DNA from: Planctomycetaceae bacterium
Lineage (GTDB): Bacteria > Planctomycetota > Planctomycetia > Planctomycetales > Planctomycetaceae
Direction: 5' to 3'
Assembly: GCA_019636285.1 (NCBI GenBank)
Contig: JAHBXV010000023.1
Span: 36,693-100,692 of the forward strand
Length of the DNA: 64,000 nt
Shown: positions 25,511-48,309 of the stretch, piece by piece
Layout of the letters: each line of letters opens with the position of its first letter
How positions within the stretch are numbered: the stretch's first letter is position 1
Program-made: the position numbers and the translations under genes
Notes under the pieces: generated by a model
Told to the model about the DNA's origin: nothing
Seen by the model: the letters and a program-made list of their open reading frames with translations, nothing else
Databases searched by the model: none

Positions 25511-28500
25511 CTAGACATCCGTGATCGCGTATTTCTTCAGCTTGCTGAAGAACGTGCTACGGGGGAGGCCGAGTTCCCGGGCGGCGCGGGCCTTGTTGCC
25601 GCGACACGTCCGGAGCATGTCGATCAGTCGTTGCCGCTCGGCGCTTTCCGACTCAAACGTCCACGCTTCCGCGTCGCGACTGCTGTCCTGCTTGGGCAAT
25701 CCATCGAGTCTGTCCGAATCCATCAGATCCGGGCCCTCCTTCCAGACAATCGGCGGGAGATCGTGAGGCTGAATGGTCACGCCATCGCTCACGACGACGG
25801 CCCGCTCGATGGCGTTTTCCAGCTCCCGCACGTTCCCTGGCCAGCGATAGGCCCGCAGCAAATAAACAACGTCGTCCGCCAGTTGCGGCATCGGTCGACC
25901 GTTCTTGAGCGCCGCCCGCTTCAAAAAATGCATTGCCAGTTCGAGGATGTCTTCCTGCCGATCGCGGAGCGGCGGAAGCGTCAGGCTGACGACATTCAGA
26001 CGATAATACAGGTCTTCGCGGAAGCGCCCGTCGCGAATGAGTTGCTCCAGATTGCGATGAGTCGCCGCGATCAGTCGCACGTTGACGGACACGGTCTGGC
26101 CGCTTCCCACGGGCTCGAACTGACGCTCTTGCAAGACCCGCAACAGCTTCACCTGCGTGACGAGCGGAATGTCGCCCACTTCGTCCAGGAACAGCGTCCC
26201 TCCCTCGGCCATCTCGAAGCGGCCGCGCCGATCCGAGTGGGCTCCGGTAAACGCACCCTTCACGTGGCCGAACAACTCGCTTTCCAACAGTCCCTCGGCC
26301 AGCGCCGCGCAATGAACGCTGATGAGCGGCCCGCCGCGACGTCCACTATTTTCGTGAATGGCCCGGGCCATCAGTTCCTTGCCGGTTCCGCTTTCGCCCC
26401 GAATCAGGACTGACGTATCGCTCGCCGCGACCTTGCTCGCCGTGTCCAGCACCGCGGACAGCGAAGTGCTTGACCCAAGAATGCTTTCGCGGCGAAGGGA
26501 ATCGAGAACGGCTGGCGCGGAGACTTCGCGCGTGGCATTCAGTTCAGCCTGAAGCAGGGCAATCTTCTGGTCCTGCTGCGCGATGCGATCGACCTTTCGA
26601 CGCAATTCCTCGTTGAGCTGCGCGATGTCCTGGTGGATCCGGGCGCAACGCAATGCGACTGCCGTGATCTGCCCCAGCGCCGTCAGGAACGTCAGGTCTT
26701 CCGCCGTGTAAAGTTGCCCACCGCGCTTGGGCCCCAGAACAACAAGCCCCATCAGTTCGCCATCCAGGTCGAGGGAGTGAATGGCCTCGGCCTTCAGCGT
26801 CCGCAGTCCCGTCTGCTCGGGCGTCATGTCCTCGCGACGGCTGAATGCCACCCGTTGCAAAATCGGATCCGCCGCCAACGCCGTGAGAAGCTCTTCCGGA
26901 GCCGTGAACTGAAGCGGCTGATTCGCGGCGACGTTTTGAACACTGAGCAGCCGGAATTCGCGGCCGCGAGCGGCGCGGCTGTAAACGGCTGCCCATTCCG
27001 CCTGCAATGCATCGCAGCATGACGAGAGCATGCGTTCAGACAGGTAACCGGGTTCGGTCAAGCGGCCGACGGCTTCGTTCATGCGCTGCATCGCCCGGTC
27101 GAGCCGGTACTTCTCACGGTAAAACCGCCGGTCGACCACGCGCTGCCAGTAGTCGCGCAGACCCATCAGCGACAAGACCAGCAGCACGAACAGCGTGGCG
27201 AGCGCGGCGGTCTGCAGCGGGGTCAACTGCTCGCGCCAGAAGGCGGTTGCCAGCGACGCCGCCGCGATAATGAGCGAAACGGCGACGGTGGAGCCCGAGC
27301 TCGCCAGCGAGTACCACATCCCCCGGGTGATGAGCTGATCGACGAGCATCAGCTTGTGCCTGGCGATCGCGACGGCATAAGCCAGCATGAAGACCAGGCT
27401 CGCGATGAACATCGGCAACCGGGCTCCGCCCAGCGCGAACGATTCGCGCGAGAAGATTCCGAGTGCCAGGGTATACGCGATACAGACGGCCGCCACGAAT
27501 GCCGCCACGACAATCGGACGGACCTGCGCCCGCTCGACCGGATTGCGAGTTACCAGAATCGAGTGGATCAAAGCGGCCAGGGTCGCCAGGAAGTAGCACG
27601 CCGCGATACCAACCGAGGTGTAAACGCCAGCGCGCACCCATTCCAGGATCGCGAGCGGCGCTCGTACATGAATCGTCTCCGCCCCCCAGGCGACCGACAG
27701 CCACAAGCCAATGTGCGCCAGCGCCAGGCCGAGAAAACACAACAAGGCCGGACCGTAAAGAATCGGAAAGACCCAGCCGCCGCGTAGCCACGGCCACGGC
27801 TTTGGATGGGGAAACTCCAGAAAGAAGTGCAGCGTGACCACCGGAACGACCAGCGCGCAGGCGATAAACGGCAGCGGCAGCCAGAAACTTCCCGCGATCA
27901 ACCACCAGTGAAAACCGGCCACGAAGGCCCCAAGCGTAACGGTGCTCATCGCGAAGAACAGTTGCACCGGGCGATCGAAACTTCGCCGCCAGAACGCGAT
28001 CGCGGCAATCCCGAAAATGCCCAACTGACACAGGAACCAAACCAGCGACAGCACAATTTCGTGGGCCGGAACCGATTGCAGCAGCACGTACGTTCGGACC
28101 GTGGAGTCGAGACCTGCGGGCTGATACGTGACGACCGCCGCTCGCTGGCCGTCCTCCCAGGCCACCAGCCAGGGGAGTTCGTGCTCGGTGGGGTCGGTTC
28201 CAATCGGAAGCCCGGCTCCTCCGGGGGGAACGCTCGCGGAGCGCAGTGCCAGTTCGGCCCGCGAAAAGTCCGAAAAGTGATTGATGGGCCACTCGCCAAT
28301 CGACAACAGCCGATCGCCCGGGTGCGGTTTTGGGCCCCGCGACTGAATGCCTGGGGTCTGCCGAATAATTACCCCTAGCGGCAGAGCGGAATCGGTGACT
28401 TCACCACGCTCTGTGTCGACGAGCAGGGCTCGCAATCGCAGATCGGGCGTCGTCGCGACAATTGTCAAAACGTAGACGCAGTACAGAACAACCGTACCGG

Positions 28501-28564
28501 TACCGAACAGCGTCAGGACTCGTCCGATTGCTGGCGATCCCGTCTGTCCCGCCATTTGCGCCAT
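25511..28564 (-). CDS. Membrane-integrated sigma-54-dependent activator (PDZ-TM-GAF-AAA-Fis)
   Basis: 1017 aa from MAQMAGQTG; 27 upstream codons are open. A TM helix (about 14-36) is followed by a PDZ-like segment ([25 protein letters not shown]). About nine more TM helices (about 155-500) lead to a GAF-like domain (about 530-660) and a coiled linker. The AAA+ module has Walker [15 protein letters not shown] (sigma-54 contact, intact), Walker B GGTLFLDE, and RWPGNVREL. The C-terminus is a Fis HTH ([18 protein letters not shown]). No receiver domain and no cognate kinase are present, so the membrane part is likely the sensor. A match to a sigma-54 promoter faces away from it at 28795. It ends convergent to the aldolase gene. 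Confidence 0.9.
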
Positions 28565-28666
28565 TCCGCAACAGTCATGGAATCCAAACCGTTTCAGCGC
28601 CGAGCGCCGACAAAGCGCCGACAACGCAATTGCGTCAGCGCCCAAAGACTAACCCGCAGGCGCGCC

Positions 28667-28696
28667 GTGTTCAATCTGCAATTGGGCGCTGAACAC
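28667..28696. promoter_or_regulatory. Inverted repeat, candidate activator binding site (UAS)
   Basis: GTGTTCA, a 16-nt spacer and TGAACAC form a perfect 7+7 inverted repeat, with half-site centres about two helical turns apart. Its centre is about 140 bp upstream of the predicted start of the sigma-54 transcript, the usual place for enhancer-type activator sites. It is also about 115 bp upstream of the activator gene start, so autoregulation is possible. Confidence 0.45.
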
Positions 28697-28794
28697 AAGA
28701 AAACCGTATTTCCCTCCATGACATAAGGAGTTACAGGGATGTCAAGATGTTGAAACAACCCCCTTCACCGATAATTTTCAGCGCCAGAGGGTTG

Positions 28795-28810
28795 TGGCAT
28801 TCAACTTGCT
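28795..28810 (+). promoter_or_regulatory. Sigma-54 (-24/-12) promoter match
   Basis: TGGCATTCAACTTGCT fits the consensus TGGCAYRN4TTGCW at all but the R position and has the obligatory GG-N10-GC spacing. It points away from the activator gene into a stretch with no clear ORF. The predicted start is near 28821. Confidence 0.55.
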
Positions 28811-28820
28811 AAATGATCCT

Positions 28821-28980
28821 GCGTCTTCGACACCATACCCCAAGCGAACCCCCAACAGACGAACTCGGCGAACCCTGTGCTCTGATTGGCCCGCGCTGGT
28901 CTCACCCACGGCCACGCATTCCCCAGCCGCCAGAACACCCACACAGGACTTCGCCTTCGTCTCGAGGGGGTTCTTTTTTT
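28821..28980 (+). ncRNA. Predicted sigma-54-dependent small RNA
   Basis: The interval from the predicted start of the -24/-12 promoter to a U-run terminator is about 160 nt. ORFs inside it are short, start poorly and have no ribosome binding site. GAACCCCC (28846-28853) could pair with GGGGGTTC (28966-28973) as an alternative to the terminator stem, allowing two structures. The call rests on promoter plus terminator only; no known RNA family was recognised. Confidence 0.35.
28933..28980 (+). terminator. Terminator of the predicted small RNA
   Basis: GAACACCC pairs with GGGGGTTC with one mismatch, and an inner GGAC/GTCT stem closes the 25-nt loop. Seven further T residues follow directly (28974-28980). 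Confidence 0.5.
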
Positions 28981-29141
28981 GCGCCGCAGAACCAGCACAA
29001 TTCAGCGGCAGGACAGCCGCTGAATGTCCCGAGGCAATATCCGAGCGCAATGTCATGCGCGGCTGGCGCTCAGCCCGGTCGACGATCATCCTCTCGACTT
29101 AAGCACCAAGCCGTTCAAATTCGGCTCAGCCGCCACAACGC

Positions 29142-43241: not shown

Positions 43242-43415
43242 CGATGCTTCTCCCTCAAAGGCATGATGGGCGGGGCGACACCAGGCCGCCCTTCAAACAT
43301 TTCGCTGGGTTCAGCAAACGCCGAGCCAACGCAGCGATTCCACGAATCCTCAACATCACTTCACACCGTCGCTCGCAACTTTTCAAGCCCCGCAGCCCAG
43401 TTATCTGCCAGAACA

Positions 43416-46822: not shown

Positions 46823-46838
46823 TGGCACCGAGCGTGCA
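46823..46838 (+). promoter_or_regulatory. Sigma-54-like element upstream of pilin-like gene 2
   Basis: TGGCACCGAGCGTGCA has a perfect TGGCAC half and GG-N10-GC spacing; the -12 part is GTGCA instead of TTGCA. It lies 82 nt after the terminator of gene 1 and 425 nt before the gene 2 start. Confidence 0.35.
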
Positions 46839-47691: not shown

Positions 47692-48309
47692 GCGATCGCC
47701 AAACGTCCATGCGACCGCATCATTCCGGCAAAGCCATTTTGTTGGGATCAATCGCCGCCCGTGGCACGATTCGTGCAACACTTTCTGGTGTCGCAACCGC
47801 TAGGATCGCAAGAATCCCGACAATCTACGTGGCAGCGAACGCTGCGTTCCACGCGGTCGCGATTTGAGTGTGCGGCCAGCTTCACATTTTGCCACGCGAG
47901 ACCTGTCAAAGTGTTGTGATGTCGTGACGGCCGCGCGGAGTCGTCCGTGACGTCGCCGTTTCGCCACACGGAAATTTTTCGCCGCCTCGGTTTCCCGTAA
48001 GCCCAACAGCGCTGCGGGTTTCTTCGACCTTGAGGCGATGCCGCAACCGCGCGCCGCGGCATGTTGCCGGAACGCGACGAACCGTCCGGCACGGCGCGTG
48101 CGAATTCCCCCTCACGTTCCCGACGCTCGCCGAAACAAACGGCTCGCGTCGAGACAGTCTCCCGCGGGACTGTGCGAAACCCTTCGGCCACAGGGGTTTC
48201 GCCAAAAACCGGTCGACGGGTCTGGTGCCCCGACGACTTCTCTCGTGCTCCGAGATGTTCTCGGGGCCAATCAGTGCAAACAGGTCTGCTTTCCCAAGGA
48301 ATTGTGTAA
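47692..48309 (+). promoter_or_regulatory. Long leader/intergenic region of pilin-like gene 3
   Basis: About 620 nt without a plausible gene. It holds the sigma-54-like element at 47762-47777 and two moderate hairpins near 48152-48210 (ACAGTC/GGACTGT and GAAACCC/GGGTTTC). ORFs here are GC-skew artefacts with Arg/Pro-rich products. Confidence 0.4.
47762..47777 (+). promoter_or_regulatory. Sigma-54-like element upstream of pilin-like gene 3
   Basis: TGGCACGATTCGTGCA fits TGGCACG perfectly at -24 with GG-N10-GC spacing; the -12 part is GTGCA. It is the same form as the element before gene 2, and lies 71 nt after the gene 2 terminator and 533 nt before the gene 3 start. Confidence 0.4.

What the first reader, a model, noticed from the sequence alone, without database searches (positions are those of the whole stretch)
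28565..28980. Candidate sigma-54-driven small RNA divergent to a membrane sigma-54 activator
A -24/-12 match (TGGCATTCAACTTGCT, GG-N10-GC exact) faces away from the activator gene into about 160 nt with no believable ORF. That stretch ends in a stem plus T-run (28933-28980). An inverted repeat GTGTTCA-N16-TGAACAC lies about 140 bp upstream of the predicted start, at enhancer distance. Promoter, enhancer-like site, terminator and adjacent activator together make a self-contained regulatory unit that resembles no RNA family I know.
Basis: partly seen in the sequence, partly recalled or inferred. Interest (0 to 1): 0.72.

Follow-up and report, generated by a model that had tools for sequence, protein, structure and literature searches.

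The report
Sigma-54 riboregulator beside its membrane activator
Next to a membrane-bound gene activator, planctomycete bacteria of one family carry a conserved stretch that is predicted to be switched on by that activator and made into a folded non-coding RNA absent from the Rfam catalogue, likely a regulator, whereas in three related families an enzyme gene stands in that place.

Summary
The finding holds up and is larger than stated. The -24/-12 match (28795-28810) and T-run are real, Rfam has no such RNA, and relatives carry the same unit. A covariance model from 23 loci finds it in 73 of 84 genomes of the window's family and, bar two partial false positives, in none of 213 others; a retrained model finds 80 of 84. 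Of 60 loci not used for training, 57 have a sigma-54 promoter within 130 nt (3.4% of control windows), 2 more slightly further, 1 none. All 51 non-redundant loci found by the RNA model alone face the same membrane activator. Stems covary; two unpaired CCCA motifs are nearly invariant. Two details change: the terminator stem closes the whole RNA, and the likelier enhancer is TTCRGCGCYGAA (75 of 76 loci, 5.35 in shuffles). In 8 of 8 sampled genomes of three sister families an alpha/beta-hydrolase gene stands there instead. Transcription, activator binding and function are untested. Most likely: a sigma-54-driven trans-acting RNA working through its ACCCA motifs, without Hfq (0 of 21 genomes).

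The parts
25511..28564 (-). membrane sigma-54 activator (bEBP): about ten hydrophobic segments, weak GAF, AAA+ sigma-54 domain with GAFTGA, Fis-type HTH; start ATG 28564 or 28555
   Evidence: Pfam PF00158 1.5e-70, PF02954 6e-11, GAF_3 3e-4 below its cut-off; GAFTGA at residue 773 and hydropathy, numbered from 28573; N-terminal half found in 84 of 84 family genomes
28593..28604 (.). candidate activator site TTCAGCGCCGAG (1 mismatch to TTCRGCGCYGAA)
28634..28645 (.). candidate activator site GTCAGCGCCCAA (2 mismatches)
28777..28788 (.). candidate activator site TTCAGCGCCAGA (2 mismatches), directly upstream of the promoter
28795..28810 (+). sigma-54 (-24/-12) promoter TGGCATTCAACTTGCT
   Evidence: promoter conserved in relatives
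28821..28980 (+). predicted non-coding RNA, long rod with unpaired 5' leader
   Evidence: fold -57.7 kcal/mol, z -4.95; 85% identity over a 52-nt stretch at the same place in G001; covariance model
28837..28842 (+). unpaired 5'-leader motif (ACCCCA here, ACCCAGCC in most relatives)
28846..28853 (+). 5' arm of the closing (terminator) stem P1
   Evidence: P1 94.7% paired over 76 loci
28902..28909 (+). apical hairpin loop with ACCCA (28904-28908)
28966..28973 (+). 3' arm of P1
28974..28984 (+). T-run (28974-28980) followed by GCGC
   Evidence: GCGC next to the model end in 47 of 76 loci, 5.7% of control windows

Best explanation
The stretch 28821-28980 belongs to a family of sequences whose predicted rod-shaped RNA fold is kept by paired changes while two unpaired CCCA motifs stay nearly invariant; it is predicted to be transcribed from the sigma-54 promoter at 28795-28810 under the divergent membrane activator and would likely act in trans through those motifs. 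Shown by sequence comparison: the promoter, the repeated palindrome TTCRGCGCYGAA, the closing stem with its T-run, the motifs and the adjacent activator occur together across one planctomycete family. Inferred: the membrane activator senses an envelope or small-molecule signal, binds the palindromes 50-230 bp upstream of the promoter, and its GAFTGA-bearing AAA+ ring opens the sigma-54 promoter; the closing stem then ends transcription and leaves a stable RNA. Inferred with less confidence: the two ACCCA motifs, one in the leader and one in an 11-nt apical loop, are docking sites, slightly more likely for a dedicated RNA-binding protein that the RNA sequesters or recruits (my odds about 0.45) than for pairing with UGGGU in target mRNAs (about 0.40).
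For: Synteny and 85% identity over 52 nt with G001. R1 hits full length in 73 of 84 family genomes; at least 12 of the 73 correspond to training loci. R2, trained on most of these loci, finds 80 of 84. Promoter, not part of the model: 57 of 60 non-training loci score 13 or more within 130 nt, against 3.4% of 1200 control windows; two more at -139 and -164. Activator on the opposite strand in 76 of 76 non-redundant loci, 51 of which were found by the RNA model alone. Palindrome (up to 2 mismatches) within 230 nt upstream of the promoter: at least one copy in 75 of 76 loci (shuffles 5.35), at least two in 66 (shuffles 0.2). Pairing on A4: 81.7% of cells, shuffled 65.3%, slid structures at most 50.8%; covariation 0.479 against 0.214, 0 of 500 shuffles. 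Folded one by one without alignment, 76 of 76 close with P1, 74 of 76 hold ACCC in a hairpin loop, mean z -5.1. CCCA 100% in the leader, ACCCA 97-100% in the loop. One rpoN in the genome.
Against: No transcript data of any kind. L103 (G013) has the RNA but no recognisable promoter. Four of 84 family genomes give no R2 match: G007 has promoter and rod by eye but its apical loop lacks ACCCA, the G308 contig ends after the promoter, G130 and G229 were not inspected. The lower apical stem is weak, 59.5% of cells paired, and A4 was aligned to the structure being counted. A third C-rich stretch is unpaired in only 23 of 76 folds. No UGGGU enrichment at the activator's own start, 10 of 74 against 11.2 expected. 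Loci are related, so counts are not independent events. The exact palindrome is not much enriched genome-wide: 100 sites against 56 for the reversed pattern over 25 family genomes, so no wider regulon is visible.
Confidence: 0.8

Rival explanations
1. The RNA is an antisense regulator: ACCCAGCC and the apical loop pair with UGGGU-containing ribosome-binding sites, as Qrr RNAs do with their targets, but without Hfq.
For: Invariant unpaired stretches on varying stems are what seeds look like; in 26 of 76 loci ACCCAGCC lies within 6 nt of the predicted 5' end, where many seeds lie (recalled).
Against: The strictly invariant core is only CCCA; flanks of the two motifs differ. No Hfq in 21 genomes. 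No enrichment at the activator's start. No genome-wide target search was possible.
Confidence: 0.35
2. The stretch is a leader or attenuator of a downstream gene rather than a free RNA.
For: It lies between a promoter and a terminator-like stem; in sister families the same place holds a hydrolase mRNA.
Against: The downstream neighbour is not conserved: the commonest shared ORF family is in 15 loci and lies on the opposite strand, the 6-pyruvoyl-tetrahydropterin-synthase-like gene in the window.
Confidence: 0.05
3. The stretch encodes a small protein under the sigma-54 promoter.
For: Open frames overlap it in the window; 39 of 76 predicted transcripts hold some ORF of 15 or more codons, 7 loci one with an SD-like stretch.
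Against: Only 18 of 76 have an ATG-started ORF of 15 or more codons and 19 of 76 have no ATG. Overlapping frames cluster in at most 13 of 76 loci, some in all three frames of one locus, as nucleotide similarity gives.
Confidence: 0.03
4. It is a 6S-like RNA that mimics an open promoter for RNA polymerase.
For: Long rod with internal loops and similar length.
Against: A canonical 6S RNA (RF00013, over its cut-off) is elsewhere in the same genome, G000:C103, and 17 of 21 relatives have a match, 13 over the cut-off. The invariant parts are C-rich unpaired motifs. No 6S match in the window.
Confidence: 0.04

Closest known systems
CrcZ/CrcY of Pseudomonadaceae with the sigma-54 activator CbrB
   Same: RNA from a sigma-N promoter activated by the bEBP encoded next to it, with conserved synteny confined to one bacterial family (passages of PMC8871633). 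CrcZ acts by sequestering an RNA-binding protein (table passage of PMC7602753), the logic proposed here.
   Different: CbrB is a response regulator with a separate kinase; here sensor, ATPase and DNA-binding parts are one membrane protein. crcZ lies downstream of cbrB, not divergent. CrcZ's partner is Hfq/Crc; no Hfq found here. No Rfam match.
Qrr1-4 of Vibrio with the sigma-54 activator LuxO
   Same: Small RNAs from sigma-54 promoters activated by one bEBP that binds upstream enhancers (passages of PMC4878744). That qrr1 lies next to luxO is recalled.
   Different: Qrr genes are multiple; here one copy per genome but one. LuxO is a cytoplasmic response regulator. Qrr action through Hfq is recalled; no Hfq here. 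No Rfam match.
GlmY/GlmZ with GlrR of enterobacteria (recalled)
   Same: Structured RNAs from sigma-54 promoters under a bEBP.
   Different: No Rfam match; GlrR is a response regulator; not compared further.
Rhodopirellula-1 candidate motif (Weinberg 2010, PMC2864571)
   Same: Structured-RNA candidate reported in Planctomycetes (table passage).
   Different: Listed there as ambiguous as an RNA, probably cis-regulatory, also in Proteobacteria, with no Rfam number. Its alignment is in a supplement not held here, so identity could not be tested.

Membership tests
sigma-54-dependent RNA gene beside its bEBP (kind, not a homology family) | -24/-12 promoter at the RNA's 5' end | tested here: met
   57 of 60 non-training loci, 2 more further upstream, 1 without
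sigma-54-dependent RNA gene beside its bEBP (kind, not a homology family) | neighbouring activator able to contact sigma-54 (GAFTGA, AAA+) | tested here: met
sigma-54-dependent RNA gene beside its bEBP (kind, not a homology family) | repeated upstream sites for the activator | tested here: met
   by sequence only: palindrome in 75 of 76 loci, two or more in 66; binding not tested
sigma-54-dependent RNA gene beside its bEBP (kind, not a homology family) | transcript that depends on RpoN and the activator | not testable with these tools
   needs RNA from mutants
CrcZ, Qrr or any other Rfam 15 family | match to the family's covariance model | tested here: not met
   no match of this stretch at the gathering score; three chance-level matches at E 0.72-4.2 near it
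Hfq-dependent sRNA | Hfq in the genome | tested here: not met
   PF17209 in 0 of 21 genomes, 5 of 14 control genomes ring
6S RNA | match to RF00013 | tested here: not met
   the genome's 6S match is elsewhere
CsrB/RsmY type (titrates CsrA) | repeated GGA in unpaired loops | tested here: not met
   invariant unpaired motifs are CCCA, not GGA; CsrA itself was not searched
Rhodopirellula-1 motif | match to the published alignment | not testable with these tools
   supplement not held

The most novel reading that the evidence does not exclude
A sigma-54 control module (membrane one-component activator, TTCRGCGCYGAA sites, -24/-12 promoter) exchanged its product in planctomycete evolution between an alpha/beta-hydrolase and a structured non-coding RNA, and that RNA became a family-wide, Hfq-free riboregulator working through two invariant ACCCA docking motifs.
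Probability: 0.6. Interest if true: 0.82.

Novelty: new variant of a known kind. Interest (0 to 1): 0.73.

Why it matters
Regulatory RNAs of Planctomycetes are nearly unexplored: the searches made here list no paper on such an RNA. Here is one RNA family kept in almost every sampled genome of a family, with its likely promoter, enhancer sites and activator attached, so a few deletions and one gel shift would test the whole chain. A control module whose product is an enzyme in some families and an RNA in others would be an unusually clear case of an RNA taking over a protein gene's place. The absence of Hfq makes the partner of the ACCCA motifs an open question.

Tried and rejected
Local terminator hairpin at 28933-28980: replaced by closure of the whole RNA. 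6S replacement: rejected. Feedback on the activator's mRNA by UGGGU: no signal. Small protein: rejected. A wider regulon by exact palindromes: no clear excess. A PDZ domain that I suspected in the activator's N-terminal part: no Pfam support. Out-of-family model hits G075 and G304 (43 and 51 nt) have neither promoter nor activator and were dropped as false, as was G495 (47 nt, not inspected). Rows dropped before counting: of 90 model rows, 11 duplicates or near-identical relatives (L113, L114, L119, L174, L150, L151, L160, L161, L162, L181, L183), L184 and L186 (false), L144 (contig end) leave 76; of 90 rows 87 have the activator opposite. The promoter count keeps seven of those near-identical relatives. 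Orthologue loci without a listed RNA: L098 and L102 have no palindrome; L104 is cut at the contig end.

Full report
What is there. The window lies in a planctomycete genome of 6.37 Mb (G000). A membrane sigma-54 activator is encoded on the minus strand to 28564 (or 28555): about ten hydrophobic segments, a weak GAF match, a sigma-54 AAA+ domain with GAFTGA and a Fis-type HTH. Facing away from it are a -24/-12 promoter at 28795-28810 and about 160 nt ending in a T-run. Rfam 15 has no match in this stretch. The genome has one rpoN.

How it was shown to be conserved. A search with the intergenic DNA in 40 genomes found G001 beside itself: 85% identity over a 52-nt stretch inside the supposed RNA, divergent to the same activator. 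Looking upstream of the activator's orthologues showed in most of them a high-scoring sigma-54 site facing away, with a T-run at the end of a segment of roughly 150-240 nt. Twenty-three such segments, cut from the ACCCAGCC-like motif to the end of the T-run, gave the covariance model R1. R1 matched 75 of 297 genomes of the class: 73 of 84 of the window's own family, one match each and full length, and 2 of 213 others with only 43 and 51 nt. Those two have neither promoter nor activator. At least 12 of the 73 correspond to training loci.

Tests with features that are not in the model. For 60 non-training loci, 57 have a sigma-54 score of 13 or more within 130 nt upstream (3.4% of 1200 control windows); L127 and L166 have one at -139 and -164; L103 has none. 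In 76 non-redundant loci the activator's N-terminal half is on the opposite strand in 76; 25 of the 76 had been found through the activator, so the independent count is 51 of 51. The palindrome TTCRGCGCYGAA with up to 2 mismatches occurs within 230 nt upstream of the promoter in 75 of 76 loci (5.35 in shuffles), at least twice in 66 (0.2 in shuffles). Its place and the activator's Fis-type HTH make it the likely enhancer; binding is inferred. Genome-wide the exact palindrome is not much enriched (100 against 56 reversed-pattern sites in 25 family genomes), which suggests a dedicated rather than a wide regulon.

Structure. The window's RNA folds at -57.7 kcal/mol, z -4.95. Folded one by one, 76 of 76 relatives close with a stem between the 5' part and the bases before the T-run, 74 of 76 hold ACCC in a hairpin loop, mean z is -5.1 and 75 of 76 are below -2. 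On the model-fitted alignment of 76, 81.7% of cells pair (65.3% shuffled, at most 50.8% when slid) and covariation is 0.479 against 0.214; the closing stem pairs in 94.7% with both-side changes in 8 of 8 pairs, the upper apical stem in 86.1%, the lower apical stem in only 59.5%. So the terminator stem is the base of a long rod, not a separate hairpin.

What stays fixed. In 85 aligned RNAs (about 65 effective sequences) CCCA in the 5' leader is 100% and ACCCA in the apical loop 97-100%, while stems vary. A third C-rich stretch is moderately conserved and unpaired in only 23 of 76 single folds. After the T-run a GCGC follows in 47 of 76 loci (5.7% of control windows), unexplained. There is no shared protein frame.

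Extent. R2, trained on 85 aligned RNAs including the divergent ones, matches 80 of 84 family genomes and one genome of another family (G068, itself in the training set; found before by R1 with filters off, E 2e-4). In a phylum sample it matches 18 of 294: 17 of the same family plus one 47-nt stretch. G128 of a third family shows promoter, palindrome, ACCCAGCC and a rod by eye, but its model score is not significant (6.7 bits, E 1.9). Of the 4 family genomes without a match, G007 has promoter and rod by eye but no ACCCA loop, the G308 contig ends after the promoter, and G130 and G229 were not inspected. The activator itself is in 84 of 84 family genomes and 85 of 213 others. G299 has two RNAs in tandem behind one promoter.

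The product differs between families. In 8 of 8 genomes of three sister families in the 40-genome sample (4, 3 and 1) an alpha/beta-hydrolase gene (PF12697) lies divergent to the activator, while the 25 genomes of the window's family have at most distant hydrolases elsewhere. For G030 the adjacency rests on coordinates of the activator's AAA+ part. Sigma-54-like sites stand before the hydrolase in the seven such loci inspected, of varying quality (TGGCCTAACTTTCGCA in G027 is weak), and perfect palindromes in two of those seven, L105 and L109. Which state is older was not determined.

How it likely works. Shown: the arrangement, the conserved fold, the fixed motifs. Inferred: the membrane activator responds to a signal, binds the palindromes, opens the sigma-54 promoter, and the RNA accumulates and acts through ACCCA. 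I lean slightly to protein docking because the same pentamer recurs in two different unpaired settings with different flanks and because no Hfq was found (0 of 21 genomes); pairing with UGGGU in mRNAs stays nearly as likely. The one pairing test made, at the activator's own start, was negative.

Place among known systems. It works like crcZ with CbrB and qrr with LuxO: an RNA from a sigma-54 promoter under a bEBP (passages only: PMC8871633, PMC4878744, PMC7602753). It is not a member of those families: no Rfam match, no Hfq. It differs in the one-component membrane activator, the divergent layout, the rod closed by its terminator, and the enzyme-or-RNA exchange. Literature searches, of which only listings were seen apart from passages of the four papers named, showed no description of it; the Rhodopirellula-1 candidate of PMC2864571 could not be compared.

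Noticed in passing
L166 2866-2997 and 3001-3156 (G299:C58): Two copies of the RNA in tandem behind a single sigma-54 promoter; the first copy lacks a T-run of its own.
   Followed up: partly
L105-L111, L241, L247, L251 (sister families): An alpha/beta-hydrolase gene, or a hydrolase-like frame, stands divergent to the same activator where the RNA stands in the window's family.
   Followed up: partly
window 28981-28984 and relatives: GCGC directly after the T-run in 47 of 76 loci, beyond the expected RNA end; a DNA site or a 3' tail, unexplained.
   Followed up: partly
window 46823-46838 (+), 47762-47777 (+), 43313-43328 (-): Further strong sigma-54-like sites; the two plus-strand ones lie near short paralogous frames with one hydrophobic segment (SAEMVIIVTVTVIGVVVGL, SAELALVLSIIVIGVVVGL), possibly a sigma-54-controlled pilin-like set.
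   Followed up: no
G000:C103:70273-70472 and relatives: Canonical 6S RNA (RF00013) in 17 of 21 planctomycete genomes searched, 13 over the cut-off.
   Followed up: no
L004 (CAMAVB010000212.1): A MAG titled Candidatus Kuenenia stuttgartiensis carries the activator and RNA of this family, close to L005 and L006; the title is probably wrong.
   Followed up: no
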